Both the position numbers and the translations under genes were made by a program. Of a DNA stretch of 64,000 nucleotides, positions 34,421-55,395 are shown piece after piece (the stretch's first letter is position 1; each line of letters opens with the position of its first letter). The notes below the pieces were generated by a model that saw only the letters and a list, made by a program, of their open reading frames with translations, was not told the DNA's origin and did no database searches. The stretch spans positions 8,174,028-8,238,027 of the forward strand of contig OZ025278.1 in assembly GCA_964019165.1 (NCBI GenBank), in the 5' to 3' direction. Source of the DNA: Mastigias papua (taxonomy: Eukaryota; Cnidaria; Scyphozoa; Rhizostomeae; Mastigiidae).

Positions 34421-34422
34421 TA

Positions 34423-34699
34423 CAATAGTGGACAAAAGTCCTGGGACACTTTGCAATTTTTTACTCTGCGCTCATCTCTCATCCCCCTCCTCCCCTTAAA
34501 CAATGTTGGTTTGTGGAAGGAGTATATACGATAGCGGAAAATTTTCACGTGTGCAATAGCGTCAAGTGTCCCCTCCATCAGCCAACATTGTTCCTGGGGG
34601 GAGGGGGTTGCCTATAAGGTGTAAAATTAAGGAAGTTCAGAGGAATATGGTTTTTTTTAGTTTTTCCCTAAGTGTCCCAAGGACTTTTGTCCACTATTG
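34423..34699. mobile_element. Tc1-type MITE copy A
   Basis: 277 bases with TIRs CAATAGTGGACAAAAGTCC and a quasi-palindromic interior. TA lies on the left, TCTG on the right. The TIR style and TA target suit the IS630/Tc1/mariner superfamily. Confidence 0.85.
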
Positions 34700-34845
34700 T
34701 CTGCTATCAAATTTTCGCTATAGACACTACTGAGCTGCAATCAGGTCGGAACATGGGGTTTTCGGGGGCGCTGAGTGTGATGGTGTGAAGAGTTTTCCCA
34801 TAGGTCTACCCCGTGACGTCATACCAACGTCATGGGGTAGGTTTT

Positions 34846-35775
34846 ATGGTCCGTGCCTCCTTAAAGTGCAAACCTCCAATACTCAACAGAAGAGAGAAGG
34901 ATCGCTTTCTCAGAAAGTTTAAATGTATGAGAGAACAAAATCCAAACTTGACGGTAGGGGCTATTGCAATGGAGTGTGAACTCCATCATGTTAGTAATAA
35001 GACGTTGTGTAGACTTCTCAACCAGTCTGGGTATAAGTATGTTCGGCCAAGGAGAAAAGGCATCCTCACGGCCAGTGACAAAAGGAAACGGGTTGCGTAT
35101 GCAGTTAAGGCTGTAAAACATACGACTCCAGCTTTCTGGACAGAGGATGTTCTGCTGTACTTAGATGCAGTGTCGTTTGTCCACAAACGAAATCCCTATG
35201 AGGATGCATTGGCACCAGCCGCCAGGGTGTGGAGAACGCCTGGTGAAGGTCTGGAGCTAACAGCAAAAGGGAGAAAAGATCTCAGGGGTGGAAATATTTG
35301 TCACTATGTAGTAGGCATTTCTTTTGGGGGCGGAGCAGTACTGGTTGAGGAGTATACGACAATGAACGGAAAATACTTTTCGGAATTTATCGAAAAAAGT
35401 TTGCATAAAATACTTATTGATCGGGCTGCTGCAAAAGGAAAGGATAAATTGCTTTTTCTTCAAGACAATGACCCGAGCCAAAACACTGCGAAAGCAAAAG
35501 AAGCACTAAACAATATAGGGGCAGAGGTCGTTAAAATTCCGGCAAGGTCCCCAGATTTAAACCCCATAGAGAATTTCTTTCATAACGTAAAAAGGAAGCT
35601 CAGGCAAGATGCCTTAGATAATAGGATAGTAAATGAAGATTTAATTGCATTTAAGCATAGAATTGTGCGCACAATTTCTAATTATGACATAGGTATCATA
35701 GATAAAACAATAAGTAGCATGTATAACCGATTAATTACAATGACTAAAAATAGAGGGTGCCGAACGAAATATTAA
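34846..35775 (+). CDS. Tc1/mariner-like DDE transposase (DD34E)
   Basis: A DNA cut-and-paste transposase of the IS630/Tc1/mariner superfamily. The frame is open from 34804; I chose the ATG at 34846 because the codon at 34813 is GTG, giving 309 residues. The N-terminal part has an HTH-type DNA-binding region (residues about 10-60, with LTVGAIAMECELHHVSNKTL) followed by a basic linker. Catalytic residues, numbered from 34813: D118 in YLDAVSF, D218 in FLQDNDPSQ and E253 in RSPDLNPIENFF, with 34 residues between the last two. No stop or frameshift is seen. The first of the two usual Tc1 HTH motifs seems short or absent, so an upstream exon is possible. It is the likely mobiliser of the MITEs beside it, by inference. 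Confidence 0.85.
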   Translation: MVRASLKCKPPILNRREKDRFLRKFKCMREQNPNLTVGAIAMECELHHVSNKTLCRLLNQSGYKYVRPRRKGILTASDKRKRVAYAVKAVKHTTPAFWTEDVLLYLDAVSFVHKRNPYEDALAPAARVWRTPGEGLELTAKGRKDLRGGNICHYVVGISFGGGAVLVEEYTTMNGKYFSEFIEKSLHKILIDRAAAKGKDKLLFLQDNDPSQNTAKAKEALNNIGAEVVKIPARSPDLNPIENFFHNVKRKLRQDALDNRIVNEDLIAFKHRIVRTISNYDIGIIDKTISSMYNRLITMTKNRGCRTKY

Positions 35776-36188
35776 CTATGTTCGTGCACTTGGATACTCT
35801 TATGTAAAACTGTACACAACTTATTTAGGACAGAGAAGATGCGTACAAATGTAAGTGCTGTAACACCTACATAATACTTAGGGACTCTAATTATAACACA
35901 AGGGACTCTGAGGGGCAGGGGGCCCGATACCCCCATGGCTAGTCGTTCTCATAAGTAGTATATAAGTAGAGTTCTTGTCGATACTAAACCTAATACTCCA
36001 GAGTTTTAAGTCTTTTCTAGGTTCCTTTCCAACGTGAACAATCATAGTACATTTGGAGAAGATGCCGAAACCTTGAATATTTCAAAGGAAACCGTGGACA
36101 AGCAACTTTCTGCTGAGCATACTAAATCACACGCTTGTACGTGCTCCCATAGAACTCATACTCAACAACAACAACTGGTAGTAGCAAC
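35776..36188. other. 3' flank of the transposase gene
   Basis: No ORF of note. It holds the repeated phrase GGGACTCT (about 35881 and 35904) and a G-rich stretch at 35910-35930. The small ORF at 36127-36357 has no domain. Confidence 0.5.
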
Positions 36189-36602
36189 GTTTACACTCAC
36201 AGTTTACACTTGAAAATCTACTGAAAAAGGCCATTTCACTTGAAATAAGGGGGAAACTGACTACTGTACCAGATGTACGCAATCGTTGTACATCTGGCAG
36301 TGATTTTTTATTATTTTTTTCATATACATATTTTGCAGTAAGGAAGGAAAACTGCACGGTTTACAAAATTTTTCTATCAAAAGTCACATGATCTGAGTCT
36401 TAAGTCTTCAGAAGTGTAAACCGTCGAGAAATGTCGATTTTTCTGGTACTACAGCGTGTTCTACATGCTTTTAAGAGCTCCATCGGGTGTACACAAACTG
36501 TGTACATCTGTTACATAGATTACAAACGTTAAATACATATTGTAAGAAGAAATATAGAGCATTTTACAAGTGTAAACTGTGGGTGTAAACCGTGTAAACT
36601 GT
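36189..36602. repeat. Cluster of GTGTAAACYGT motifs (iteron-like)
   Basis: The string GTAAAC with flanking GT/YGT recurs at about 36189 and 36203 (inverted), 36356 (inverted), 36414, 36571, 36583 and 36592. Three direct copies are spaced about 10 bases apart just before the stem-loop at 36611. Repeated short motifs beside a Rep gene and hairpin resemble Rep-binding sites, but binding is inference. Confidence 0.55.
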
Positions 36603-36610
36603 AGCATAAA

Positions 36611-36656
36611 TGACAACAAGACACAGCGGGATATAGCCCGCAGTGTCTTATTGTCA
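36611..36656. other. Stem-loop, candidate replication origin
   Basis: The arms 36611-36630 and 36637-36656 pair at 18 of 20 positions around the 6-base loop ATATAG. It lies 69 bases past the Rep stop codon, between the two convergent genes. HUH Rep proteins of circular ssDNA replicons nick at such hairpins. The classical nonanucleotide of circular Rep viruses is not present in the loop. It could instead be a transcription-terminating or chance hairpin. Confidence 0.45.
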
Positions 36657-36724
36657 AGGCGTATGTATACAATAGCACAGATTCCATAAAGACTGTGGGG
36701 GGCTATTATACCTATTGCTACCTA

Positions 36725-37999
36725 TCATTCTACCACGTCGAGTATAAGGTGTGCAAAACAAGTGCCGCATGGTGTCACTGTCTTTTGAGACGAAATGGGA
36801 ATCTGATGGAAAAAGTGAAACTTTCTCCATCTGACATCCATCATTTCTGTCTCTCTCTCATCAATACTGGAGCCTTTGATGAAGACTATGGGAGACTTGG
36901 AGGTGGCAAAAACTGGAGTGTCGCTGGTAAACTCAATATCCCTAGCATAGGTGGTTTTAGGCGCAGCGAAATGGACGACGTGGCCTTCTAACAACAATAG
37001 CATGTCATTCCAAGGTAAGATAGCTGGAGTATACCGAAAGTCATTCAAAAAGATAACTTCTTTGTCTTCAACCCCTAGCCACGCATACGAACAAGTCGCA
37101 GGTGAAAGGAAAGTGTTATATATAACTCGTAAGGGGTCAAGAATGAATGTTTTGCCACAGTTCGCTGGACCCGTAATATATATATTACGGCCCTTCCCAC
37201 GACCCATGGCGAGTAACGTAATAACGGCATCAGCAAATATACTTTGCTGAATGCCATTGTTACAGAGAATCTGCTTGGCACACTGCAACCACTCACCTTG
37301 ACAGACACACGTATTATTATAGGCCTGTTTGAGGAGATCAGTGCGGGACATTGACCTCCTGTCCAACGTTTGCTGCGCCCTTTCCATTGACCATACAGAC
37401 TGTATGAGTTCGTTCACTCTTTTTTCACCTCTATTCAATACAAACTCATACAGCCTGCTGTCACCATTCGTTTTTCTCTTTTTTGCCAGAGCAAGGAGAT
37501 GTAACTTGGAGTCAATGCTGTGCGAGACAATGATGTTGGAGACCTCCAAGTTACTAAGCCGTTTTGTCTGTGCACCTTTGCCTTTCTTATGTGACGACCG
37601 GTTCCGTATTGCCGAAGACGTCTTAGGGAAAGCAATTGCAGCTGGGTGATTCTCGCTTCTCAGAACCTGGGTATCCTGCTTTGTAACATACTGGTAAGCT
37701 GTATGATACCCAGAGTGACCTGAGAAGTTAACAACAATATTTCCATGCTCCTGGAGATATTTCTTAACTTTTTTCCATCTCTGAAGCTTGCTCAAAAGAA
37801 GACACATATGAAAATGGACACCCGCATCCATATGATGTTCCATGCAACATGCCCATTGAATGATGAGAGCTGTTGTTACAGCTTGGAAAGCAGTTGTTAC
37901 AAGTTTTCCGAAGGACTCACGATTGAACCTTTCTGTATCTGCTTGACTATATGTTAGCAGATACACTTTTCTAACTTCATTGTTATTTAATTGAGCCAT
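36725..37999 (-). CDS. Rep-like protein: HUH endonuclease fused to SF3 helicase
   Basis: An intact 424-residue ORF. The N-terminal HUH nicking domain has motif 1 YLLTYSQ (13-19), motif 2 HFH (62-64) and motif 3 YVTK with Tyr104 and Lys107. A basic linker follows (135-175). The C-terminal SF3 helicase has Walker A GPANCGKT (277-284), Walker B VIFLND (315-320) and motif C PVFATSK (362-368). This domain order is that of Rep proteins of circular ssDNA viruses and of parvovirus NS1. I recall similar uncharacterised proteins in marine invertebrate genomes. Rep nicks a hairpin and starts rolling-circle or rolling-hairpin replication. No capsid gene is nearby, so it is a mobile-element gene or an old viral acquisition; the intact frame argues against long neutral decay. 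Confidence 0.85.
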   Translation of the reverse strand: MAQLNNNEVRKVYLLTYSQADTERFNRESFGKLVTTAFQAVTTALIIQWACCMEHHMDAGVHFHMCLLLSKLQRWKKVKKYLQEHGNIVVNFSGHSGYHTAYQYVTKQDTQVLRSENHPAAIAFPKTSSAIRNRSSHKKGKGAQTKRLSNLEVSNIIVSHSIDSKLHLLALAKKRKTNGDSRLYEFVLNRGEKRVNELIQSVWSMERAQQTLDRRSMSRTDLLKQAYNNTCVCQGEWLQCAKQILCNNGIQQSIFADAVITLLAMGRGKGRNIYITGPANCGKTFILDPLRVIYNTFLSPATCSYAWLGVEDKEVIFLNDFRYTPAILPWNDMLLLLEGHVVHFAAPKTTYARDIEFTSDTPVFATSKSPIVFIKGSSIDERETEMMDVRWRKFHFFHQIPISSQKTVTPCGTCFAHLILDVVE

Positions 38000-38011
38000 T
38001 ATGATATTACT

Positions 38012-38155
38012 ATCTCTGTGATTTTCTTGTCGTTCTCTGTACGCAAGTGCTACTTTTGCTATACGATGAATAATTGGACTATTATGTCTGTGATTTTATT
38101 GTCGTTCTCTGTAGCCAACTGCTATGTTTGTGCCACGAGGAATAATTTGAATATT
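38012..38155. repeat. Two 72-bp direct repeats upstream of rep
   Basis: 38012-38083 and 38084-38155 are diverged tandem copies (shared TCTGTGATTTT, TTGTCGTTCTCTGTA, GAATAATT). They start 12 bases before the Rep start codon, so they lie in its promoter region. The first copy is preceded by GATATTACT. Confidence 0.65.
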
Positions 38156-38764
38156 CCCGCCGTGTGCTTATTGTTTGAGAACGGAAGTTTTCCAAACACT
38201 TTAACGGTAATGGACATATGCAGTAGATATCGACCATTAAAATGGCGCTTTTGCGGTCAAACAGCTTATCTCTCTCGTAAAAATACAGGTGAAAAACTAC
38301 TTGATGAGAAGCTATTTTCAGATTGTACATACTACCGAAGAGCCAAATTACTTGTGTAAAAATGTATAAATGAAAATCTGCATCTAGATAATGATGATGA
38401 TTATTATTAACAGAGGATTGTGTGGTAGCCTCGTTTGCAATTTTTTACACACACATACCACAAGGGCATTACTCACGTATATAGAGAGCTAATTTGATCC
38501 AATTTTGTACATATTCTCAGGACATGTTCCACGATGCTTGATCTACCGATAAAATTGTATTCCAGCAATAACCCTTTCGTCGTATTATCGCTTTAGGCAG
38601 GTACACTGCCACAGAGGCAAACCGATAGACCCCCACACGGTATGACGTCACAGAGGTGACTTACAACATTTTTATCATCGCCATCGTGTTCAGCACCATC
38701 GATTACCCCTTGACCGACCAATACATTGCAGGTATAACGTGTTTTGAAAAATTTTACCTCCAGA
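38156..38764. other. Left-over right end of the transposase-Rep unit
   Basis: No gene supported; the 38,000-38,360 plus ORF is non-coding by appearance. The last 126 bases (38639-38764) are the right inverted repeat of the unit. A CRE-like palindrome TGACGTCA occurs in both terminal repeats. Confidence 0.5.
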
Positions 38765-38843
38765 CAATAGTGGACAAAAGTCCTGGGACACTTTGCAATT
38801 TTTTACTCTGCGCTCATCTCTCATCACCCTCCTCCCCTTAAAC
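38765..38843. mobile_element. Tc1-type MITE copy B, left part
   Basis: The first 79 bases of a second copy of the 277-bp MITE, in the same orientation as copy A. CAGA precedes it instead of TA. Its continuation is at 45469-45666, after Gypsy copy B. The last four bases AAAC are the Gypsy target site. Confidence 0.88.
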
Positions 38844-39062
38844 TGTAACAGGACCGATATCCACCTCCTTATTAGAAATTACTATGTAGCCTCGTAATGA
38901 TTACGTAACATGTGAGTCTCATTGTTCAGTCTTTTATTGTCTATTGTGTGTAAATGTATAAATAGTAGAATCTTAATTTGTAAGGGAGTTGATTTTGATT
39001 ATGAATAAAGAGTACAAGTCTGTCTTCTTTCTGGACAACTCTAAGACTCGAGCACTGTCACA
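38844..39062 (+). repeat. 5' LTR of Gypsy copy B
   Basis: Starts TGTAACAGG and ends CTGTCACA. It carries a TATAAATAG box-like string at about 38958 and an AATAAA polyadenylation-like signal at about 39003. TTGGTGTAGGACCCG follows as the primer-binding region. Confidence 0.93.
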
Positions 39063-39104
39063 GAATTGGTGTAGGACCCGTCTGCCTTCAAGGCTCTACG
39101 ATCC

Positions 39105-41915
39105 ATGGCGACGGTCGAAGTTGTCGGCATTATTAAAGGACTTGCTGCTGTAGTGCAAGACCAGCAAGCTGCTTCAAAAGATGCCTATTCAAAGACACAG
39201 AAACAAATCCAGGATTTGTCTGCTGCTGTCCATGCGTTATCAAACACCGTGGGCACGAACGGGGCCTCAAGCTCTCCCCTTCGCCTGCCTCAACTCACAT
39301 TACCGGAGTTTACAGGATGTGAAAATCTCGACCGGTTTACAGAGCAATTAACAAATGTTCTAACATCTTCAGGTGTCTCTGCCAAATTTTGGTTCACTTA
39401 CTTAAAGCAACAATGTCGCAAGGATGCTCGTGCCTTCGATGTCATTTGTAATTATGAAACAACTCATGCTTCAAAGATAACTGAAAAGACATCCAATGCT
39501 GAATATCTTGACTTTTATCGCAAGTGCCTAACCCGCCTCACTACCCAACGTGGTGTTCCTAAGGAGCAGCAAATACGCCAACTCCTCTCTACCTACTATT
39601 CGATGAGTCAGCAAAAGATGGAATCCGTCGCTGATTTTGCTCACCGCTTTTTGGAAACACAGCATAGTCTGGAAAAGCTCATTCCCGGCATCCATCGCTC
39701 TGGTGAGGACATAGAATTAATCCATGCCTTTATGCTGAAATTACAGCCTACAATTAGTAAGGACCTGATCAGTAGAGATTCCACTTTCTCATCTTTGACC
39801 GCAGTGATCGAGGCTGCCAAAAGGTTCGAATGTGTCGACTCTCAACAGTTGCAAGGGGCTGAAAAATCCTGGACACCTCACGCCGCCTTTGCCGCTCAAC
39901 CCGCTTCACGATCTCTCTCTACCCGCAGCGCCGCCAAAGCTCAGGAACTCAAGGTAGATAACACATTTTCTAAACACAAGGACCATCAGTCAGGTACACG
40001 ATTATGTCGATTTTATAATAAATTTGATGTAGCGAATTGTGAGTTGCCTAATCATCAATGCTCTCGGGGTTATATTCATAAGTGTTCTACCTGTTTTAAA
40101 GTATCTTGTAAGGCGTATAATCATCATAAGTCCTCTTCATCTCCCTTTTTGTCCTCGGGTTCTCGCCATCCACCACGCAACTCCCCCCAATCCAGTAGAG
40201 TTCAAGCTAATTATATAGCACCTAAAGATCAGGCCGTTCCGGATTCATTTATGGATTCTGTTAAAGCTGTTGTTCAGGATTCCTTTCAATCGTTAAAGCA
40301 CGATTTGGCAACAAGCATTGAAACCGAAGTAAAACGCCAACTGCCCCAGCCCTCCCCAGTGTCACTTTCTAATGCGACTACGACGCAAGATCCACTTTTT
40401 AGCATGCCTGCTACCACTTCTCTGCCCGTAAATGCATCATTTTCGGCCTTTGATCTTGCGGACAAAAACATTCTTTGGGCTAAGGTCACGTCTGCAGGGG
40501 TTTCCCTCCCTTTGCCCTTGGATAGTTGCTGCTCAGTTTCCCTTGTCAGTCAAAATCATGCAGAAACCGTAGTCAAATTCAACCCTGCACTTCAATTTAC
40601 TAAATTAGAGCAGCCTATCCCTGTTTCGGTCGCCGGGCCAAATTCTTCCCTCAGGGCCGTTGGCGTTCTTCAAGTGCCTATTGTTTGGGAATCGGGTCAA
40701 TCCGCTCTGTTCACGATGCTTGTTGTTCCTAATTTAACCTGGCCTATTCTCTTTGGTCAGAATCATTTGCGCAAGACCGATGCACGTATTTATTCTAAGG
40801 ATTTGCGCGTCTTTTTTGCTGACCCAGCCTTGAATTTTGAGGTTCAATGCTATGACACGAATCCGCTTGAAGCTTTTCCTACCCTGAGAGGCCATCAGCC
40901 ATGCCATAGCTCCACGGCCAATGTTACGTGTTTACTGACCGCTATGCCCCAGCCTGGCGCAACAGCAGAGCACGTTTCATTAACACGGGGACTCAATCTT
41001 GTCACAGTTTGCATTGTCGTTGCTGCTTCCCTTGTAGGCTCCCCCCTGCTAGCGGGACCATTATGGCTGGAGGGTGCTCAGTTTTCATCAGGGCTTCAGT
41101 CCTTAAGTGGCCCCATAGCTCTTCAGTCTCTCAAACGTGCGGCATATCCTGGTGAAAGGTTGCCCCAGTTTTTTCCCTCCAGCCCTTCTGGGTTTTCAAA
41201 GTGTCGTCCAAGTCGCCCTCTTGCCCCTATAGGAAATTCATGCATGGCTGCGTGGACATCTCAAAGCGATCTTCCCATTCATTCTTTGGACCCGCAGGAT
41301 ATGGTATTAGTCACTAACGTTTTAGTACATTCAGATACTGCCTCAGCTCAGTTGCCTTTTCATGTGTCACTAGGAACCATACGCCCATTTTCCGAAGCAG
41401 ACACAGTCGAATATCAGACTGCCGTGAGATATACCGCGCAGCACTTGTCTGATATTTGGTTTTCACAAGTAGGTCTTAGTGATCATGATTCCCATTTATC
41501 CTCTGAGCATCTTGTCGCTATGCCAGGATATACTTCTGCACTGCCATCAGGTTTAGATTCATCTCTATTGTCTGAGTTTTTGGACAACAACACTGTTGAA
41601 CACGAACACGCCTTTCCGCCCACAGACACGGTGACTCTTAAACCTGATTCTTTAGACTTTCAGGATGCGCTTTTTACAGCTTTAGAATTAGACACGCCTT
41701 CTTATGCACATGTGCCCCGTCCTATATTGGCACAATTCAAAGAGCTCTTACATAAATATCCTCACGTCTTTCATTTGCCCAATTCGCCTCTTTCCACCAT
41801 CAAAGGTTTTTTCACAATATTGACACTGGGCAAGCGCCTCCAGTTTATCGCCTTCCTTATCGCAAGAGTCCTGCTGAACTTGCAGCCATTAAGGAGGAGC
41901 TTGAGCGCATGGTAA
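39105..41915 (+). CDS. gag-pro: Gag-protease polyprotein (Gypsy copy B)
   Basis: A long ORF of 936 codons starting 42 bases after the LTR. The N-terminal part is a Gag with a predicted helical start (residues 1-50) and capsid-like region (55-250). A Cys/His-rich segment (about 304-345: CRFYNKFDVANC, CSRGYIHKCSTCF) replaces a plain CCHC knuckle. The retropepsin-like domain is at about 455-580: the active-site strand reads PLDSCCSVSLVS, Asp473, and WPILFGQNHL follows about 90 residues later. DSC instead of DTG/DSG is unusual. Residues after about 900 are read in the wrong frame relative to Pol, because the RT start lies in the -1 frame. Confidence 0.85.
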   Translation: MATVEVVGIIKGLAAVVQDQQAASKDAYSKTQKQIQDLSAAVHALSNTVGTNGASSSPLRLPQLTLPEFTGCENLDRFTEQLTNVLTSSGVSAKFWFTYLKQQCRKDARAFDVICNYETTHASKITEKTSNAEYLDFYRKCLTRLTTQRGVPKEQQIRQLLSTYYSMSQQKMESVADFAHRFLETQHSLEKLIPGIHRSGEDIELIHAFMLKLQPTISKDLISRDSTFSSLTAVIEAAKRFECVDSQQLQGAEKSWTPHAAFAAQPASRSLSTRSAAKAQELKVDNTFSKHKDHQSGTRLCRFYNKFDVANCELPNHQCSRGYIHKCSTCFKVSCKAYNHHKSSSSPFLSSGSRHPPRNSPQSSRVQANYIAPKDQAVPDSFMDSVKAVVQDSFQSLKHDLATSIETEVKRQLPQPSPVSLSNATTTQDPLFSMPATTSLPVNASFSAFDLADKNILWAKVTSAGVSLPLPLDSCCSVSLVSQNHAETVVKFNPALQFTKLEQPIPVSVAGPNSSLRAVGVLQVPIVWESGQSALFTMLVVPNLTWPILFGQNHLRKTDARIYSKDLRVFFADPALNFEVQCYDTNPLEAFPTLRGHQPCHSSTANVTCLLTAMPQPGATAEHVSLTRGLNLVTVCIVVAASLVGSPLLAGPLWLEGAQFSSGLQSLSGPIALQSLKRAAYPGERLPQFFPSSPSGFSKCRPSRPLAPIGNSCMAAWTSQSDLPIHSLDPQDMVLVTNVLVHSDTASAQLPFHVSLGTIRPFSEADTVEYQTAVRYTAQHLSDIWFSQVGLSDHDSHLSSEHLVAMPGYTSALPSGLDSSLLSEFLDNNTVEHEHAFPPTDTVTLKPDSLDFQDALFTALELDTPSYAHVPRPILAQFKELLHKYPHVFHLPNSPLSTIKGFFTILTLGKRLQFIAFLIARVLLNLQPLRRSLSAW
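41807..41813 (+). promoter_or_regulatory. Candidate -1 ribosomal frameshift site TTTTTTC
   Basis: In the gag frame the codons read GGT TTT TTC, so the heptamer is T TTT TTC, a canonical slippery pattern. Slipping back one base leads directly into a -1 frame beginning HNIDTGQAPPVYRLPYR and continuing through RT. A one-base indel in the T-run is the alternative explanation. Confidence 0.55.
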
Positions 41916-43714
41916 AGCTCAACATCATTCAACCCAGTCATTCTCCTTGGGGCTCTCCTTGTATTCTGGTTCGTAAGCCCCCAGAAAAAGGGAAACCTCA
42001 ACCCCCTCGTTTTGTGGTTGACTATAGGGCTCTTAACGCGATTACCTTAGGAGATGGGTACCCCATCCCCAACGTTTCCAATATTTTGGACGCCATAAGT
42101 GGGGGTAAAATCTTTGGTAAACTGGACTTGGCTAGTGGCTACTGGCAAGTCCCAGTTAACCCTAAGCATAGAGAAAAAACTGCCTTCTGCACCCATTTAG
42201 GTCTTTGGGAAAATCTCAGAATGCCTTTTGGGTTAAAAACAGCCCCACAAACTTTTCAACGCATTTTGAACACTGTGTTTGCTGACTTTCTGTATAAATG
42301 GCTTATTATCTACATCGACGACTGTGTCACGTGGTCACACTCATTCGAAGAAGCACTAGTCCACTACCAGAAAATTTTCGAACGTGCATCCAAGTTTGGA
42401 GTTCAATTTAAGCCGTCTAAGTGCTCATTTTTCTCCACTAATCTTCAAATTTTAGGCCATCGTATTACTCCTGAAGGTCGTTTTCCTACTGAAAAAGGGA
42501 CAGAATCTATTTCCTCCTATCCCCGGCCTCGTAATGTTTCTAGTCTAAAACGATTTCTGGGAATGATTGGCTATTTTCGGGAATACATCAGAAATATGTC
42601 CCAATGTTCACAAAATTTACGCTCATTACTCAGCCCAAAAGCCTCGTTTTCATGGTCAGATCAACATGAGGCTGAGTTTCAGGGTCTTAAATCTGCCCTA
42701 CTTTCTAACGACATCATACTATCCCACCCAAAATGGGATAGGGAATTTCAAGTTCACACTGATGCTAGCAAAGCAGGTTGTGGTACAATGCTTGCACAGC
42801 AACATAACGGCATCCTTCGGCCTGTTCGTTTTGCTTCTAAAGCATTTACTCCCACGGAATCGCGCTGGCCTACAGCCCACCAGGAACTTTTTGCTGTCAA
42901 ATGGGCTTTAGAGCAATTTCGCCATTATCTTATAGGTCACAAATTTCGCGTCATCACCGACCACGCTAATCTCAAATTTCTAGCCTCAATTGCTCCTCAA
43001 AATTCAAAACTTGCTAGGTGGTGCCTCTCTTTGGCTGAATTCGATTTTTCCATTGAGCATCGTCCTGGTAAAACCAATGTTGTGCCAGATGCCTTGAGTC
43101 ACGCGCCTTTGCCTACTCCACATCCCGAGGCCTGTATTCTCGTCATTCCTCCTTCACAGGTCTCTTCCTTTCTCCTAACTGCTCTGGGTTTTGATCTCTG
43201 CTTACAAAATACTGCGCCAGAGCCTCAGCCTTTTACCAGTCCTCTCACTTGTCTAAATCTCGCCTGCTCTACTCAAACACCTCTCAATACTACCGCTCTA
43301 CCATCTTCCTCCCACCGACTGACTCCGATCAGACCCTGTTTCGCCACCGCAGTGGACATCCCTGTAGCAGGTTCTACTCAGAAGTTGCAAGAACATCTGC
43401 CTGAGTCTACACCCTGGCCTGACAATTTCGAACAGCTGCGCCCGCTCAATTTCAACAGGGTAGAATTTGCGCAAAAGCAACGTAAAGATCCTTGGTTAGC
43501 GCCCCTTGTGCAGTTTCTTATATCTGACAACTCACCAAAATCTATAGCTCTGTATGATCCCAAAGTTCGGAAGTGGGTCACCAGTATTGCTAAGCACACA
43601 AAACTTATTGATGGTTTGTTATTTTATTCAGACGAATTTATGAAAAATCCGGATCATTTGAGCCTCTTTGTTCCATCAGACGTGGAATTAGAGCATCATA
43701 TTTTGCTGTCATAA
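41814..43714 (+). CDS. pol: Pol, RT and RNase H (Gypsy copy B)
   Basis: Open in the -1 frame from the slippery site; the first in-frame ATG is at 41909. RT: PCILVRKPP, FVVDYRALNAITLGDGYPIP, KLDLASGYWQVPV, MPFGLKTAPQTFQ, catalytic YIDDCV, LGHRITPEG. RNase H: FQVHTDASKAGCGTMLAQ, RWPTAHQELFAVKWALEQFR, VITDHANLKFL, IEHRPGKTNVVPDALS. A long spacer then leads to the integrase. The TAA at 43712-43714 sits in the integrase zinc region (ILLS-stop-HDSPLG), where related elements have an amino acid. Confidence 0.92.
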
Positions 43715-45100
43715 CATGATTCCCCTTTAGGTATGCAACGAGGGCGTGATGCTACTTATAATGCCATTTCCCGTGATTTTTATTGGCGCAATTTATCTAG
43801 GCATGTTCGTAACTGGATCCGACGTTGTCCACACTGCATTCGGTTCAAAGCATTGAGCCAACCTCATGGACCAATGCAGGTGCGTTTGTACCAACATCCA
43901 TTTCATACTTTAGGCGTTGACTATGTCGGGGAACTTCCTTCATCTCCTTCTGGTAATAAATGGATTCTTACCGCTGTCTGTCCGTATTCCAACTATTTAC
44001 GAGCTATTCCAGTTCCAGATAAAACTGCAACCACTGCCGCATATGCGTTGTTTCATGACGTCTTCTTACTGTTTGGTTTTCCCTCCATTTTACAAAGTGA
44101 TCGTGGAGGCGAATTTCTCAATGCTGTCCTACATCGGCTTACAGCCTTACTGTCTATTAAACATGTCTTTACCTCTGGTTACAGGCCACGCCTCAATGGT
44201 GCTACTGAGCGCGTTCACCGCTTTCTCAATAGTGCCATAGGAATTTACTGTGAGCATTACCAATACCGTTGGGAAGACTTCTTACAACCTGCTGTCTATG
44301 CGCATAATACATCGCCTATCTCGGGTACTTCTGATATCACGCCATTTTTTCTCGTATTTGGTCGTGACGCACCTTCGCCGGAAACGCTGTCCCTTCAACT
44401 GCCTCCAGATACCCTCCCAGCAGACCACTATGCGCAACAATTAATTGCAAGAATGAAGGTTGCGCAAGATCATTTTAGTAATATTAAATCTGATCTACGC
44501 CATCGTCAGCTCGAACTCTATGATACCGCCTCACGCGATTTGCATATCCCTGATGGAAAGCTTGTTTATGTTCGCAAAGACGGCTTACCTTCTGGCCCTA
44601 ATACTGTCTCCCGCTTCATTCGCACCTACGATGGTCCATATTTAGTTATTGGTCATCCGTACGCACGCTCTGATCTCTTGCATTTACGCAAAGTTGACAC
44701 TGGTGAAAATCTGCCACGCCCTGTCAACATAGAAAAGGTAGTCGTTGTCCCTGAGTTCACCTCAGGGGACTTGCGTTCCGCAGAGGATATCCTTGTCGCA
44801 CCAGACATCGAGCCTACTGCAGAACAAGGGCATGTTACTCCAACCTCGGAGTTAGTATCTGTTGCTTTTGAGTTCGGCAAGTATTTAGAAACCTTGCCTA
44901 ACAAGTCAGCTGTGTCATCACAAGCCTGTAAATTTGTTTACGAGCATTTTCCTGCCGCTCGTGCAATCCTTTCCCGCCATGGCCGTCTTAAAGGTCTCGT
45001 TAAGTCATGCCCGTACCTCCAAATTGAGGGCGGTTCACACGGGGGTACTTATATCTTATCCCTAAACCAAGAAATTTTCTCCCGTATATGTCGTTCATAA
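43715..45100 (+). pseudogene. pol: Integrase part of Pol (Gypsy copy B)
   Basis: Same frame as the RT part, cut off by the single TAA. The zinc-binding module continues as HDSPLGMQRGRDATYNA and CPHC. Catalytic core: Asp in LGVDYVGELP, Asp in LQSDRGGEFL and Glu in NGATERVHRF. The C-terminal tail has KLVYVRKDGLPSGPNTVS, the integrase SH3-like region, and an extra 100-residue end. Read-through or a sibling copy would be needed for a working integrase. Confidence 0.9.
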
Positions 45101-45245
45101 ATTTCACACTCTTGATTTCTAGTTAATCATGGACAATTTCCTCCATCATCTTATCTCTTGTAATTGCTATTATCATTGTGTTGTGACGTAACCACAAAAA
45201 AAATTATAAACCAGTTTCTAATTTTTTTATCAACGAGGGGTGGAC

Positions 45246-45464
45246 TGTAACAGGACCGATATCCACCTCCTTATTAGAAATTACTATGTAGCCTCGTAAT
45301 GATTACGTAACATGTGAGTCTCATTGTTCAGTCTTTTATTGTCTATTGTGTGTAAATGTATAAATAGTAGAATCTTAATTTGTAAGGGAGTTGATTTTGA
45401 TTATGAATAAAGAGTACAAGTCTGTCTTCTTTCTGGACAACTCTAAGACTCGAGCTCTGTCACA
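45246..45464 (+). repeat. 3' LTR of Gypsy copy B
   Basis: Matches the 5' LTR except for one base by eye (GAGCTC versus GAGCAC near the end). A purine-rich ACGAGGGGTGGAC tract precedes it. Confidence 0.93.
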
Positions 45465-45468
45465 AAAC

Positions 45469-45666
45469 AATGTTGGTTTGTGGAAGGAGTATATACGATA
45501 GCGGAAAATTTTCACGTGTGCAATAGCGTCAAGTGTCCCCTCCATCAGCCAACATTGTTCCTGGGGGGAGGGGGTTGCCTATAAGGTGTAAAATTAAGGA
45601 AGTTCAGAGGAATATGGTTTTTTTTAGTTTTTCCCTAAGTGTCCCAAGGACTTTTGTCCACTATTG
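45469..45666. mobile_element. Tc1-type MITE copy B, right part
   Basis: The remaining 198 bases of the MITE, ending CCACTATTG followed by TA and LINE copy 2. With 38765-38843 it totals 277 bases, the length of copy A. Confidence 0.88.
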
Positions 45667-47771
45667 TAGGTCGGAAACCGCTCTGAATGATGCTAATTTC
45701 TTGATCTATTTTTGCTATAACCCTTTTTTGTACGATCTTCAATAAAAGCTTCGTCATATGACTCATCAAACTTATGGTACGAAAATCTGAGCAACTGTGT
45801 GCATTTGGCTTTTTTGGTATAGGCACAGAGATTGATTGTCTAATGTCTTTTGGAATAAAACCTGTGTGATAGATGTCATTGCATATCTCTGTGATGATGT
45901 TTAGGTTGTTGCTATCTAATGCTGCCAAAATCTCAGCTGATATTTGATCTGGGCCTGTGGCCTTCCCTCTTTTCATTGCTCTAATTGCTGTGTCTACTCC
46001 TGACTTTAGGATTGCCTTACCAGTAAGAGCATTGTTGTCTGACAAGGTCTTTCTTTCATCATCATACAATTCAGCTATGTATTCAACCCATCTATCTGCT
46101 ATACCTTTTTGTTCAAACAGTATCCTTCCATCATTGCTCTCTATGCATCCAGAATTCCGTTTTCTTGATTTTTTAAGTTGTCAGTTGCTTTACTCTATTA
46201 TGCATCTCCTTAACTTTGTGTCCCCTATCAAGTTCCTCCACCTCTTGGCATTGCTGTATCATCCAATCTTCTTTTGCATTTCTACACATGTCAATAACTT
46301 CTCGGTTTAACTTGTCATATTGCTTTGGATCATTATTTTTGGCTATTCTTCTGAGATTCATTTTGTCTAGAATGTCACCTGTCATCCACTCCTGCTTCTT
46401 AGTTATACTTTTTCTTGGTAGAATCTCTTGTGCAGTTCTATGCAAAGCGTTCTTTACATGTCTTATTTCCTCTGTACTGTATCTGTACTATCTGGTGCTT
46501 GTTCCTGTTCCTCTACATTAAGAACAAATTTATTTTGAATTGAAACATTGAACCTACTTCTGATGTTTTCCTCTTTCAACATATCTAGATTCAGCTGACC
46601 TTGCCTTTTCTTTGTTTGTACTTTTTTAAGCTTAATTTTCAATTTCATGACTACTGGGTTATGATCTGAATTGATATCTGCTCCTGGGTATGTATGCCTT
46701 GACTCTTCTAACTCCATTCTTGAACCTGATGTTTATCATAATGTAATCTATTTGGTTTCGAGTTTCTTTGTGTGGGCTTTGCCTTGTGTGGAGCCTTCTT
46801 GGATGTTGCTGAAACCATGTGTTTGTGATTACTAGATTGTGCTGTTGGCAAAACTTTATTAGCCTTTCACCACGTTCATTTGTGTCTCCTAGCTCATATC
46901 TTCCAACTGTATTCTCTAACTTGGTTCCTACCTTGGCATTAAAGTCACCCATTATGCATGTAACCTCTCCAGATTTAATCCTTTGAATCACATTCTCTAT
47001 CTTTTCATAGAAAGCCTCAATTTCATCATCTGCATTATCTTGAGTGGGAGCATCCACTTGTATTATATTAACATTGAAGGGCTTTCCTCTTATCTTCACC
47101 ATTATTATTCTCTCAGATACCGACCAGTAACCTATGATTGAATCTACTAATTTTTTCCCTAAAATGATACCTACTCCATTTTTATGTTCATCTCCTCCTG
47201 AATATATCATGGTATATTTGTCCTTTGCTATTCTTCCATTCTCTGCCCACCTCACTTCCGATAGTCCCTATATGTCAATGCTCATTCTATTCATCTCCTG
47301 TACAGCATTGTCTAGCTTTCCTGATTGATACAAAGTTCTGACGTTCCACGTCCCAATATTTAAGATTTCACCTCTAGTTTTCAGTACTGCATTGTCAAAC
47401 AACCTCCTTCCAGTTGGGTTTGGGTGGCCATCGTCATTCGCAGCCCTTTTAGCCAGATAGCTACTAACTTCTTCCCTGTCATTTGAATCCTGAAGAGTCG
47501 CAGGGGGCGCAACTCGTCGTTCTCTATCTTCTTCAATTCTATTAACCACATCCATAACAAACTATTGGTATTTACACGGTTGGGCCCTAATCCCTTCCAC
47601 GGAGCCTGGCCACAAGCCTTCATCATCAAGATTATGCCCTGAGTGTGCCTCACAATTTGCTGTTGTGCCTTTGGAGCCATTGTCTTCTCTTAAAGATCTT
47701 CTGCCTCCTCTGCCACTCCAGACTTCATGCACTTACAGGGGTGATGTCCCCTTTACAGCAACTCAAACGGA
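45667..47771 (-). mobile_element. RTE-type LINE copy 2, 5' part
   Basis: Continues the LINE interrupted at 34422. The 5' end is cut at 47771 by the Harbinger insertion; the sequence after it (57205 to about 57400) has the GC-richer look of a LINE 5' region and may be its continuation, but this is unproven. Confidence 0.85.
45669..47555 (-). pseudogene. RTE endonuclease and RT N-terminal half (LINE copy 2)
   Basis: Endonuclease: NIGTWNVRTLYQSGKLDNA (47268-47555), a TAG at 47265-47267, then SEVRWAEN, CIMGDFNAKVGTK, QIDYIMIN and, after a frameshift near 46700, INSDHNPVVMK. The linker region is 46173-46445. RT N-terminal half (45669-46069): MKRGKATGPDQISAEILAAL, FRTISLMSHMTKLLLKIVQK, IIQSGFRP, breaking off exactly at the insertion point. 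Several frameshifts show it is older than LINE copy 1. Confidence 0.88.
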
Positions 47772-49234: not shown

Positions 49235-50107
49235 CTAGCAGCTATAACTATATGGTTCTTGCATGAAATAAGATGGGAGGTACTGGATAAAGTGGCCATA
49301 ATAGGTGCCATTCTGAGGCTGCAGAAGAGTAACCAATCCTGTGCCAGCAGGAAACATTGTCTGTAATGGGATATCTGTAGACTGCGACTGGACCAGACTA
49401 ACGGCTGGCTGATTATCCCAAGGTCTCCCAAAATCATAGTAAGCTAATCTCACAGGTTGACGGCGTTCTCGCTTAGGACGGTCAATAGTCTCATGGGAAT
49501 CTCCACTAAATTGAGTGTCATTGGTTGCAGTTGCAGTGTGTTCAGTTGTATCATAATCATCTACCTGTTGAACTGGGGGTGGACTGCTAACTACATCCTC
49601 ATCTGCCGCTGGTAACTGGGATGGTGTATGTGTTCCTGTGGATGCTGTTGCCTGATCAAATTGAGGCATGGGCATGAACTGTTGCGCAGCTTGGTCAAGT
49701 TGTGCTGGAGAAAATGAAGGTAGCTCCTCATAGATGTCAGTATGTAGTGAGTCATCCTTCTCAGTAATGTCACGCTCCTTGCTGGTTTGCACCGGTATGT
49801 TCTGCTTTTTCATGGCATTCCTACCACATGACTTCTGCTCATAAGGTAAAAAAGGGCATGGTAGCAGTAAATTGCGATGCAAGGTTCTTGTTCCCCCTGA
49901 CTGTGACTCTGGACATACCTCATACACAGCATTCATTGGGTCTTTACGATTCAAAACAATGTACACCTTATCTTCCCAAAAGGAGCGTAATTTACCAGGA
50001 CCACCTCTGTCTAAAACATTCTTTACTAGTACCCTGTCACCTGGTTTGAGATCAGAGCTCCTTACTTTCTTATTATAATCGTCTCTCCCAGCAGCTGTAC
50101 TGATCAT
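49235..50107 (-). pseudogene. pol: Integrase C-terminal tail (Gypsy copy C)
   Basis: Same frame as the preceding integrase, separated from it by one TAA at 50165-50167; the frame in fact reopens right after that stop. It holds the SH3-like integrase end (KPGDRVLVKNV, GGPGKLRSFWEDKVYIV, VYEVCPES) and a 200-residue acidic, proline-rich tail ending in DRPKRERRQPVRLAYYD, as in many Gypsy Pol proteins. Confidence 0.85.
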
Positions 50108-50164
50108 TGTTTTCTCCGATGCAATCTTATAAGCCTCTGTAAGTGCATCTTGGAAGTTCTTGAA

Positions 50165-51802
50165 TTATTCTGGGTATGACTTTGCAGTTGGTATATCTGT
50201 TTGTCCAAAAATAATGTCTATTGGGAGACGCGGCTTCCGCCCAAATAACAACTCAAATGGTGAGTACCCTGTACTGTCATTACGAGCGCAATTATATGCA
50301 AAACACATTTTGTTTACATGCTCCTTCCACCGAGACTTTTGTGTTTCCGCCATTGTTCTTAACATTGACAGAAGAGTTTGATTAAATCGCTCACACTGGG
50401 CATTGCCCATAGGATGGTAAGGTGTTGTACGACTTCGCTTTATTCCAGTCAACTGCTCTAATTGATGAAAAAGATGATTTTCAAATTCTGTGCCCTGATC
50501 ATGGTGGATTTGGGCAGGGAATCCGAATCTCAGGATAAAATCATTAAATATCTTTTCTGCAGCTGTGCGGGCAGATTTATTGGTGGTGGAATATGCTTGT
50601 GCATATCTGGTAAAATGGTCGACCACAGTCAAAATGTACTCATACCCACCCACACTTTTTTCAAGATGAATAAAATCAATGGAGATGAGTTCAAAAGGTT
50701 GGCTGGTGATAATGCTCTGAGCATGGGCTCTTGGAGGTAGATGAGGTTTTTTTCGCTTCAAACAGCAGCAAACCTGTGTAACATAATGACTGATGTCTTG
50801 CGCCATGTGTGGCCAGTAGAAGCGCTCTCTTGCCAGCTCTATGACTCGATCTGTTCCTAGATGGCCCATATCCTCATGAAGGTGCTTGTATACCAACTTC
50901 TGATACCGGAGAGGAAGAACAAGTTGAAGTCTCTTGTTAGTTTTCCTGTAAAGGGCTTGATTAGTTCCAATGATAAGTCTGTTCCACTCACGCATTAACA
51001 GCTTTGTCATATTTGATTCTCGATGATGCTCTGAAATAGTTGGGCGTTCTCCAATCAATTTGGCTTGCAGTACTGGTGCAATGACTGGGTCATCTTCTTG
51101 TGCTATCTTTATATTTCCCATGGGTATTGAGCTGGGGAGGCTAAGAGATGGTGCATTCATAAGTCCGAGTACTTCCGTGTCGGTTGAAACTGAAGTTACC
51201 CAACCAACATCAGTTCTTTCCATTGCACTAATAGTGTTCATAGTGGACTGGATATCATTGTTGGCGGTTTCCTCTGTGCACTCTTCAATAAAGTGTTCTA
51301 TGTTTTTAGGCATCGGGGACATGAAATCTGCATCTTTATTTGAATGCCCTGGCCGATACTTCAGGTCGAAATTAAAATCTGCTAAAGCAGTGACCCATCT
51401 GTAGCCTGTTGCATTTAGCTTGGCAGTTGTCAGCAAATACGTTAAGGGATTGTTATCGGTGTAAACAGTAAAGTGGTTGGCATAAAGCAAATAGTCCCGA
51501 AAATGTTCTGTTATGGCCCATTTTAAGGCTAAGAATTCCAGTTTTCCAGAGTGTAAGTGATACTTCTGTTCGGCTGGTGTTAGTGTTCTGGAGGCGAAAC
51601 CGATAACTCTCATTTTCCCTGATTGTCTTTGATAAAGAACAGCTCCCAGGCCATCCTGCGAAGCATCCGTATGTAAAACAAAAGGTTGTGAATAATCTGG
51701 ATATGCCATTACAGGAGGATTTGTCAGCTGGTCAATGATCAAATTCAGTGCTATCCTATGTTGCTCTTGCCACACAACAGGGTCTTTAGAATTGTTGGAC
51801 AC
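50165..51802 (-). CDS. pol: Pol, RNase H and integrase (Gypsy copy C)
   Basis: In frame with the RT ORF but split from it by one TAA at 51824-51826. RNase H: FVLHTDASQDGLGAVLYQRQ, LHSGKLEFLALKWAITEHFR, VYTDNNPLTYLLT, LKYRPGHSNKDADFMS. Integrase zinc module: HEDMGHLGTDRV then CCCLKRKKP, with the first CC pair of the HHCC motif retained. Catalytic core: Asp in LISIDFIHLE, Asp in HHDQGTEFEN, Glu in NAQCERFNQT. The end GYSPFELLFGRKPRLPID is typical. Confidence 0.93.
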   Translation of the reverse strand: MSNNSKDPVVWQEQHRIALNLIIDQLTNPPVMAYPDYSQPFVLHTDASQDGLGAVLYQRQSGKMRVIGFASRTLTPAEQKYHLHSGKLEFLALKWAITEHFRDYLLYANHFTVYTDNNPLTYLLTTAKLNATGYRWVTALADFNFDLKYRPGHSNKDADFMSPMPKNIEHFIEECTEETANNDIQSTMNTISAMERTDVGWVTSVSTDTEVLGLMNAPSLSLPSSIPMGNIKIAQEDDPVIAPVLQAKLIGERPTISEHHRESNMTKLLMREWNRLIIGTNQALYRKTNKRLQLVLPLRYQKLVYKHLHEDMGHLGTDRVIELARERFYWPHMAQDISHYVTQVCCCLKRKKPHLPPRAHAQSIITSQPFELISIDFIHLEKSVGGYEYILTVVDHFTRYAQAYSTTNKSARTAAEKIFNDFILRFGFPAQIHHDQGTEFENHLFHQLEQLTGIKRSRTTPYHPMGNAQCERFNQTLLSMLRTMAETQKSRWKEHVNKMCFAYNCARNDSTGYSPFELLFGRKPRLPIDIIFGQTDIPTAKSYPE

Positions 51803-51826
51803 TTTACCCCTCCCTTGTTTTTGTGG

Positions 51827-54088: not shown

Positions 54089-55395
54089 CCTTTTCGATTT
54101 TGTCTTGTCCCAGCGTATCCTTCCCGTGGTGGTTTGTGTTGTTGGGAATTCCCTTGTTTTACCCCTGGTTGATGTCCCATAGAATTTTGGTTCATTTCTT
54201 GTCGCAATGACGTCATATCGGCCTTCAGAGCTTTAATTTCAGCAAGCATTTGTTCGTACAATGGGGTGGCTGGCTCTCTAGCTTGCTGGGGGGTTGAGGG
54301 CTTATTTTTTGAGGCAGAATGATTTTCCCCTGAGGGTGATTTCCCTACTTCACTTTCCTGTATCTGGGATACTTTAGCTTTCCCTTTATTTCCTATCCCC
54401 AGCTTCGCATTACGCTCTGATTCCTCTGCTTCCGCTAGGTTTAGTTGTGCAATTAGCTCTGCATCAGATATGTCTGGCTGTTGAATAAACGCCCTCATTC
54501 TTGATCTCAAGTTATTACTTATGAGCCCGGTTTCCAATGCATGCAAAAACATGGATTGGCATTGCGACACGTCATACTTCAATTTACTACCCTCTTTTTT
54601 TGAAGCAAAGATAATTTTCTCCCTGAGATTCAAGGCTCGGAGTAGGAAATTTTGGGGCTTTTCACTTGGTGTTTGCACCAGATTGGACAGACTGGCACAC
54701 AGTTCACTGGCGTTTTTTTCTTGATAATGCGCCCTAATAATATTTATCACTGTAGGAAGACCTGTTTCTCTCATGGCTTCAAGGTAGTCTTTCAGGGGTA
54801 AACCTGGGGCGATAGATTTTATCACAGCTTCGATTATTTCCCTATCAGTGTAGCCTTTTTCTTTTCCAGTTTCTATTTGTCTACTCAGACTGATGAAGGA
54901 TAACTGATCTTTTGATCCTTGAGACCCTATTATCCCCAAGATACGAAAATCTCGCTTCAAAATTGATCTGAGACTACCCAGCTCTGCTTCCGGACTTTCC
55001 TGGTCAACCCCCGTTGTATTTGCTCTCGTGTTAACCCGTGACATAATAGTTTGCAGAGTTCTCTTTTGTTTCCCTGGTGATAATTTGGCATCACTGTCTA
55101 TTTCCGTTCTTACATGCTGGTCTGAGTCAATAATGTCATCAGAGGCATCGTTAGATTTTGGATTGACCATTTCTAATATTTGCTTCAAAAATGCTATTTT
55201 TTCTGTATCTTGGAGTTTTTCAACCAGTAGCTCGATTGTATTATTCAGCACTTTCACTGTTGCTAACCGAGATTTCCCTTCATAGTCTGATTTGTCTATT
55301 TTTAACTTTTCACACACATTATAGAGTTCAGGCCGATCTAAATACGAAGCAAACCCCTGAATTTCGAGTTGTAAGTCTTCTACTTCCTCATTCAT
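53950..55395 (-). CDS. gag: Gag (Gypsy copy C)
   Basis: An intact 481-codon ORF. It has a coiled N-terminus (1-70), an acidic spacer, a capsid-like helical region (about 150-330), a second helical segment ([23 protein letters not shown]) and a C-terminal zinc knuckle region ([19 protein letters not shown], then [11 protein letters not shown]). It forms the particle and binds RNA. Its 3' end overlaps the MYND-protease frame. Confidence 0.9.

What the first reader, a model, noticed from the sequence alone, without database searches (positions are those of the whole stretch)
34700..38764. TIR unit pairing a DD34E transposase with an HUH-SF3 Rep protein
Seen: two long intact ORFs, convergent, inside 126-base diverged inverted repeats whose 13-mer GTGACGTCATACC sits exactly 113 bases from each end. 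Nearly all other genes in the window are broken. Known: DD34E transposases cut and paste; HUH-SF3 Reps drive rolling-circle or rolling-hairpin replication. Inference: one element may combine integration by a transposase with replication by a Rep. I know no described element with this pair.
Basis: partly seen in the sequence, partly recalled or inferred. Interest (0 to 1): 0.88.

Follow-up and report, generated by a model that had tools for sequence, protein, structure and literature searches.

The report
Rep-transposase element with direct terminal repeats
In an animal-like genome there is a family of small mobile elements that carry both a virus-type replication gene and a cut-and-paste-type transposase, and their copies look as if each had passed through a replicating circle or chain before the transposase inserted it; I found only one, broken, precedent in print.

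Summary
The pairing is real, but the reported unit is not the whole element. In the source genome (G000, 346.8 Mb) the element is F–E–F: 11 of 13 copies whose outer edges I could see are flanked by TA on both sides. E holds a Tc1-like DD34E transposase convergent with an HUH-SF3 Rep. F is a 279-bp near-palindrome, repeated in direct orientation, whose outer ends are the Tc1-like termini. In the window the right F is split by an LTR retrotransposon and the transposase lacks codons 1-58.

F1 and F2 pair by copy in 6 loci (1 weakly against, 3 unresolved), so copies appear to pass through a single-F stage, which plain cut-and-paste does not predict. A second family fills 27 small contigs as head-to-tail ~5047-bp arrays and sits in a chromosome as a TA-flanked tandem dimer; a third has the same plan. 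Non-autonomous derivatives kept F and the intergenic iteron/hairpin block but lost both genes.

Best reading: Rep replicates a circle/concatemer; the transposase inserts F-bounded pieces at TA. Both steps are inferred; crossing-over plus gene conversion is not excluded. Closest print: a broken truffle element (Liu 2011).

The parts
34421..34422 (.). left TA of the target-site duplication (T at 34421, A at 34422; the A is also base 1 of the 279-base F as used in the calls)
   Evidence: TA on both outer sides in 11 of 13 copies with both edges visible
34422..34700 (+). F1, left 279-bp terminal direct repeat; near-palindrome with its own 24-34-nt inverted ends (ACAATAGTGGACAAAAGTCC...), the Tc1-like outer terminus
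   Evidence: (DNA fold -61.1 against mean -27.9 kcal/mol, 0 of 200 shuffles)
34700..34825 (+). internal left inverted repeat of E (126 nt) ending in GTGACGTCATACC
34872..34873 (.). place where about 414 bp present in other copies is missing here
34870..35775 (+).
36189..36599 (.). iteron array, GTGTAAAC x4 and GTTTACAC x2, candidate Rep binding sites
   Evidence: 6 here, 4 in the rest of the 64-kb window
36611..36656 (.). 46-nt stem-loop beside the iterons, candidate origin hairpin (no canonical CRESS nonanucleotide in the loop)
   Evidence: -17.3 against mean -4.2 kcal/mol, z -7.4, 0 of 200 shuffles
36725..37999 (-). Rep, 424 aa, HUH endonuclease plus SF3 helicase; open frame
38008..38151 (.). 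two tandem 72-nt repeats (79% alike) just upstream of the Rep start; role unknown
38639..38764 (-). internal right inverted repeat of E
38764..38843 (+). F2, left part (79 of 80 bases as in F1)
38844..45464 (+). LTR retrotransposon nested in F2 (224-bp LTRs 99.1% alike; 4-bp duplication AAAC); not part of the element
45465..45667 (+). F2, right part (203 of 203 bases as in F1)
45667..45668 (.). right TA of the target-site duplication

Best explanation
The element is TA|F–E–F|TA, about 5.06 kb when complete. E carries a Tc1-like transposase and a convergent HUH-SF3 Rep. Proposed cycle: (1) F x F recombination or transposase excision gives a circle with one F [inferred]; (2) Rep binds the family-specific iterons between the two genes, nicks at the hairpin beside them and drives rolling-circle replication to multimers [inferred from Rep fold, iterons, hairpin, arrays]; (3) the transposase takes the left end of one F and the right end of the same or a later F in the multimer and inserts that piece at a TA [TA flanks and Tc1-like ends shown; the reaction inferred]. 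Taking the same F gives a solo F, the next F gives F–E–F, the one after gives F–E–F–E–F; all three forms exist in the genome with TA on both sides [shown].
For: DD34E and TA flanks: 11 of 13 family-1 copies with both outer edges visible have TA on both sides (L021 and L022 are near-identical duplicates), 10 of 12 solo Fs. F1 and F2 of one copy are sisters in the F tree for 6 loci (window 96/92, L010 99/95, L020+L026 96/90, L013 94/91, L019+L024 85/88, L021/L022 clade 99/98); F1=F2 279/279 in L003 and L005, 278/278 in L006. The internal inverted repeats stay 56-61% identical left to right in all 6 copies checked, so it is the F alone that is renewed. Family 2: ~5047-bp head-to-tail units on 27 small contigs; 3 of 3 array contigs tested begin and end inside the unit, at different phases. 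Chromosomal TA|F–E–F–E–F|TA at C1:10877573 with three identical Fs. Non-autonomous derivative: TA-flanked monomer L101 and TA-flanked dimer L102/L103, F, internal ends and the iteron/hairpin block kept, transposase absent and Rep reduced to scraps. Iterons differ by family but sit in the same place: GTGTAAAC x6, CAACGGTCTACA x6, ACGGTTTAC x5. Rep model: best PDB match AAV-2 Rep68, E 7.8e-13.
Against: No molecule was observed: circles, nicking and concatemer integration are all inferred. Tandem dimers and arrays can also come from unequal crossing-over between Fs; both units of the C1 dimer share the same transposase frameshift and differ at 1 of 4282 positions compared, which fits either route. 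F1/F2 likeness can come from gene conversion. In the F tree L009 goes weakly the other way (F1 with L014's F, 80/79), L007, L008 and L011 are unresolved, and L003-L006 are too alike to tell. L008 and L011 lack TA on at least one side; L058 has TT on both sides; the C3 array of 7 Fs has no TA on its left and no complete F at its right end. The hairpin loop is not a known CRESS nonanucleotide. For the transposase, dN/dS between copies (0.28-1.01 over the 36 pairs of 9 copies, one pair without synonymous change) gives little sign of selection within the family.
Confidence: 0.7

Rival explanations
1. A Tc1-like transposon that picked up a Rep gene and still moves by cut-and-paste. F1 and F2 are kept alike by gene conversion, tandem dimers and arrays grow by unequal crossing-over between the Fs (satellite-like), solo Fs are their deletion products.
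For: Needs no extrachromosomal stage; the C1 dimer's shared frameshift fits; direct 279-bp repeats invite such recombination; the C3 array with exactly equal 2683-bp spacing and lacking TA on the left looks like a satellite.
Against: Needs a separate conversion in each resolved copy. Array contigs tested have no chromosomal flank (3 of 3). The Rep stays under constraint (dN/dS 0.29-0.44 for L003-L006 against L008 and L009; 60% identity between full-length Reps of different families) and the derivative keeps the iteron/hairpin block without the genes, which a pure cut-and-paste element would not need.
Confidence: 0.2
2. A degraded parvovirus-like provirus that replicates by rolling hairpins at F; the transposase is a passenger.
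For: Rep fold closest to AAV-2 Rep68; F folds as a hairpin.
Against: Fs are in direct, not mirrored, orientation in the 9 full family-1 copies with two whole Fs; no third shared long ORF and no capsid-like match in the four copies listed; TA flanks and Tc1-like ends point to the transposase; the transposase is kept in all three families.
Confidence: 0.05
3. Two copies of an unrelated miniature transposon F happen to flank a Rep-transposase unit whose true ends are 34700 and 38764.
For: F occurs alone in the genome with TA flanks.
Against: Exactly the same F–E–F junctions in the near-full family-1 copies and in two more families with diverged Fs; no TA at the inner junctions.
Confidence: 0.02

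Closest known systems
Geminivirus-like transposon of Tuber melanosporum (Liu et al. 2011, PMC3198968; section 8 read)
   Same: A repeated eukaryotic element with a Rep-like ORF and transposase ORFs inside terminal inverted repeats.
   Different: Its Rep ORF is interrupted, both transposase ORFs are broken, 37-bp inverted repeats, no target duplication seen, geminivirus-like Rep; the section describes no direct terminal repeats or arrays. The transposase family is not named in the section.
IS630-Tc1-mariner transposons (family knowledge recalled; profile matches)
   Same: DD34E catalytic residues, TA duplication, Tc1-like outer ends.
   Different: Here a Rep, LTR-like direct repeats that each carry both termini, F1/F2 renewed by copy, tandem forms.
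CRESS-DNA replicons and parvovirus Rep/NS1 (recalled; fold match)
   Same: HUH endonuclease plus SF3 helicase in one protein; iterons beside a stem-loop.
   Different: No capsid-like ORF seen; chromosomal insertion at TA by a DDE transposase; loop lacks the canonical nonanucleotide; circular DNA not shown.
Planarian PEVE/PIVE and Hydra DENSOV_HM (named in Liu et al. 2011)
   Same: Parvovirus- or papillomavirus-like helicase genes in invertebrate elements, PEVE extrachromosomal.
   Different: That section mentions no transposase for them.
Helitrons (recalled; passages)
   Same: HUH-encoding eukaryotic transposons that replicate.
   Different: Different helicase type and ends (recalled); here SF3, TA duplication and inverted termini.
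Teratorn (review PMC10175614, passages seen)
   Same: A fusion of a cut-and-paste transposon with a viral replication system in an animal genome.
   Different: 180 kb, piggyBac plus herpesvirus.

Membership tests
IS630-Tc1-mariner (Tc1-like) | DDE catalytic domain with DD34E spacing | tested here: met
   DDE_3 E 8.7e-14; Sleeping Beauty 5cr4 E 1.7e-6; D118/D218/E253 invariant in 17 of 17
IS630-Tc1-mariner (Tc1-like) | TA target-site duplication | tested here: met
   11 of 13 family-1 copies with both outer edges visible; 10 of 12 solo F; C1 dimer, L101, L102/L103; exception L058 TT/TT. No empty site was shown.
IS630-Tc1-mariner (Tc1-like) | N-terminal HTH DNA-binding domain | tested here: inconclusive
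   full-length relatives carry PF01498 (P0121); window copy lacks codons 1-58 and scores 31.4 against a cut-off of 31.5
IS630-Tc1-mariner (Tc1-like) | plain cut-and-paste movement, ends inherited independently | tested here: not met
   F1 and F2 pair by copy in 6 loci, 1 weakly against, 3 unresolved
CRESS-DNA replicon | HUH-SF3 Rep | tested here: met
CRESS-DNA replicon | circular single-stranded genome | not testable with these tools
   only assembled DNA; head-to-tail arrays are compatible
CRESS-DNA replicon | origin stem-loop with nonanucleotide and iterons | tested here: inconclusive
   iterons and stem-loop present; loop not canonical (nonanucleotide recalled)
CRESS-DNA virus / Parvoviridae | capsid gene | tested here: not met
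   only two long ORFs shared among the four family-1 copies listed; for family 2, for family 3; intron-containing genes would be missed
Parvoviridae | mirrored terminal hairpins, rolling-hairpin replication | tested here: not met
   Fs direct in 9 of 9 copies with two whole Fs (L003, L005-L011, L013)
Helitron | no inverted ends, no target duplication, SF1 helicase (recalled) | tested here: not met
Tuber melanosporum Rep-transposase element | geminivirus-like Rep, 37-bp inverted repeats, no target duplication | tested here: not met
   sequences were not compared

The most novel reading that the evidence does not exclude
A replicon of animals with two phases: free head-to-tail multimers made by a viral-type Rep, and chromosomal copies made by a Tc1-like transposase that picks any two F termini in the multimer, giving solo, one-unit, two-unit or longer insertions. 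The 27 array contigs would then be the free phase of family 2 caught in the genome assembly, and non-autonomous derivatives would ride on both enzymes.
Probability: 0.42. Interest if true: 0.93.

Novelty: categorically new. Interest (0 to 1): 0.86.

Why it matters
It would join two ways of multiplying that are normally separate, rolling-circle replication and DDE-transposase integration, in one 5-kb animal element, and would show how a cut-and-paste transposase can serve a replicative life cycle. It makes a long-discussed question, how Rep replicons become transposons and back, directly testable: intact copies, solo ends, dimers, arrays and non-autonomous derivatives lie in one genome. Tandem arrays of such elements would also be a source of satellite DNA.

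Tried and rejected
The viral-contig hit L001 was spurious: its ORFs bear no relation to Rep. Genome contigs and viral-contig scans with the Rep and transposase alignments gave no relative, nor did the phage collection or the first viral scan. Contig lengths shared between the Rep and transposase hit lists (5: four of megabase size, one of 4497 bp) looked like linkage, but a crude control gave a mean of 1.5 and a maximum of 6 in 2000, so I count it as weak. The Rep and transposase trees agree for five pairs, ((family 1, c1630678),(c4497,(family 2, family 3))), but two of those pairs rest on such shared lengths and five tips agree by chance 1 time in 15. The family-2 'intergenic' stretch was wrongly delimited because the L047 transposase frame is broken; the six iterons were re-placed. 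Junction counts (inner against outer F junctions) could not be had: the tool stayed busy.

Not done: no empty site shown; no read depth; the host was not identified (relatives with names are from stony corals and a sea anemone).
Full report
What is in the window. The 126-base inverted repeats are real by a global test (score 16; maximum -4 in 2000 shuffles and in 1989 random pairs) and marginal by a local one (29; reached by 2 of 2000 and 1 of 1989). But directly outside them lies a 279-bp sequence F in direct orientation on both sides: 34422-34700 and, split by an LTR retrotransposon (38844-45464, duplication AAAC), 38764-38843 plus 45465-45667. F matches between the two sides in 79 of 80 and 203 of 203 bases. 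F is a near-palindrome (fold -61.1 against -27.9 kcal/mol, 0 of 200 shuffles).

Copies in the genome. The source genome is held as G000 (346.8 Mb, 172 contigs). The reported unit has 78 matching stretches, of which only the best candidates were scored. Eleven near-full copies besides the window (L003-L013) all contain about 414 bp more than the window copy near base 173 of the query or, where the left piece was seen, right after it; it holds codons 1-58 of a 359-aa transposase. So the window copy is an internal deletion. Nine of the eleven (L003, L005-L011, L013) have two whole Fs in direct orientation; L004 has 130 bases of the left F, and the left F of L012 was outside the piece held. The unit is 5057 bp in L003 and L005.

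Ends. Outside, F is preceded and followed by TA; inside, the junctions read CAGA|F and F|TCTG. Of 13 loci where both outer edges are visible (window, L003, L005-L011, L013, L019+L024, L021, L022) 11 have TA on both sides; L008 and L011 do not; L021 and L022 are near-identical duplicates. Of 40 scored F hits (1147 candidates) I fetched 13 that had no E hit beside them; one (L037) proved to hold part of E; of the other 12, 10 have TA on both sides. So F ends behave as Tc1-type termini.

One F per generation. In a maximum-likelihood tree of 34 F rows, F1 and F2 of one locus are sisters for the window (96/92; only the right 203 bases of F2 used), L010 (99/95), L020+L026 (96/90; taken as one copy because they lie 4 kb apart), L013 (94/91), L019+L024 (85/88), and the four Fs of L021/L022 form one clade (99/98). 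L009 goes weakly against (80/79), L007, L008 and L011 are unresolved, and the Fs of L003-L006 are identical or nearly so and tell nothing. Under plain cut-and-paste F1s and F2s would form separate lineages. The internal inverted repeats, by contrast, stay at 56-61% left-right identity in 6 of 6 copies examined. A stage with a single F (a circle, or one repeat of a multimer) is the simplest cause; repeated gene conversion is the alternative.

Genes. Both genes are open in L004, L005 and L008; L003 lacks an ATG at the usual transposase start, L006 lacks the usual transposase stop. Rep is open in 7 of 8 copies compared. Rep dN/dS for L003-L006 against L008 and L009 is 0.29-0.44; over the 28 Rep pairs it runs from 0 to 0.73 with one outlier of 2.21 that rests on a single synonymous change, and one pair has no change. 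For the transposase it runs from 0.28 to 1.01 over 36 pairs of 9 copies, one without synonymous change, so recent selection on it is not shown. The Rep model (mean pLDDT 84.3, pTM 0.58) matches AAV-2 Rep68 best (E 7.8e-13, 109 PDB matches at E<=0.001). Whole-chain TM-scores are only about 0.4 because the two domains are placed differently; helicase-only targets reach about 0.6.

More families. A Rep search of the genome (99 of 1389 candidates scored, 101 rows) gave 16 rows of family 1, 2 of a family 3 (C14, C20) and 83 of a family 2 at 60% identity: 2 on chromosome-size contig C1 and 81 on 23 small contigs, 80 of those 81 without a stop. A transposase search (113 rows) gave 15 of family 1 and 98 of family 2, all 98 without a stop and on small contigs, adding 4 contigs, 27 in all. 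Units follow each other head to tail at 5045-5048 bp, one step of 5060 (for seven array contigs). C54, C114 and C153 begin and end inside the unit at different phases. One unit holds a Rep of 429 aa, a convergent transposase of 359 aa and one F of 278 bp. Of 40 other small contigs sampled at one 400-bp place (known array contigs left out), 12 matched one of the three families, mostly at 72-81%, one at 99.75%. At C1:10877573 two units stand in the chromosome as TA|F–E–F–E–F|TA with three identical Fs; both share a frameshift in the transposase and 18 other differences from an array unit, and differ from each other at 1 of 4282 compared bases. Family 3 has the same plan, 4534 bp in L058, Fs 278/278 (L057) and 277/277 (L058), TA/TA in L057 and TT/TT in L058, and open genes of 359 and 438 aa in L058. 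F of family 2 aligns better to F of family 1 when reversed (50.5 against 24), so F may have flipped between families.

Origin. Between the 3' ends of the two genes lie iterons that differ by family: GTGTAAAC x6 in family 1 (4 more in the remaining window), CAACGGTCTACA x6 in family 2, ACGGTTTAC x5 in family 3, with a strong stem-loop beside them in family 1 (z -7.4) and inverted iterons in family 2 that fold with each other. A derivative of family-2 type, unit 2.68 kb, keeps F, the internal ends and exactly this block (74% over about 670 bp, 5-6 iterons); no transposase match was found at E<=1 and of Rep only scraps of residues 1-74 and 385-425 remain. It occurs as a TA-flanked monomer (L101, F 278/278), as a TA-flanked dimer (L102/L103), and as 7 Fs at exactly 2683-bp spacing on C3, the first two units identical; that last array has no TA on its left and no whole F at its right end. 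The pattern ACAATGCCTGCCAAAAGT of family-2 F ends occurs 1101 + 1106 times in the genome, 0 for the reversed control; only the first 100 or so places were listed.

How it most likely works. See Best explanation: Rep makes multimers from a circle; the transposase cuts at any two F termini. The forms found (solo F, one unit, two units) are what this predicts, and non-autonomous derivatives keep what both enzymes would need. Replication, circles and the cutting itself are inferred. Crossing-over between direct repeats plus gene conversion could give the same forms; I put that at 0.2.

Print. Nine searches of the open-access library (no preprints, no Repbase) showed no intact element of this kind in their listings. 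The nearest is the broken truffle element of Liu et al. 2011 (PMC3198968: passages and all of section 8 seen). Passages only were seen of PMC10175614 and PMC6668415.

Noticed in passing
window 38844-45464: LTR retrotransposon nested in F2, LTRs 224 bp and 99.1% alike, 4-bp duplication AAAC, ORFs of 936, 601 and 455 aa.
   Followed up: partly
window 49235-55395, minus strand: A second retroelement with ORFs of 481, 753, 545 and 290 aa.
   Followed up: no
G000 small contigs, e.g. L062, L068, L079, L080, L092, L096: Further divergent relatives (72-81%) of the three families: 12 of 40 sampled small contigs matched.
   Followed up: no
G000 C3:5983768-5999866 (L099, L100): Seven Fs at exactly 2683-bp spacing, without TA on the left: an array of the non-autonomous derivative inside a chromosome.
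   Followed up: partly
L047 573-850 against window 34422-34700: F of family 2 looks reversed relative to E when compared with family 1.
   Followed up: partly
L058 2131-6664: Family-3 copy flanked by TT on both sides instead of TA.
   Followed up: no
window 38008-38151: Two tandem 72-nt repeats just upstream of the Rep start.
   Followed up: no
hit lists: In both lists 18 clusters have a longest contig of 3.5-4.1 kb, more than in neighbouring bins; perhaps small complete units of distant relatives in metagenomes.
   Followed up: no
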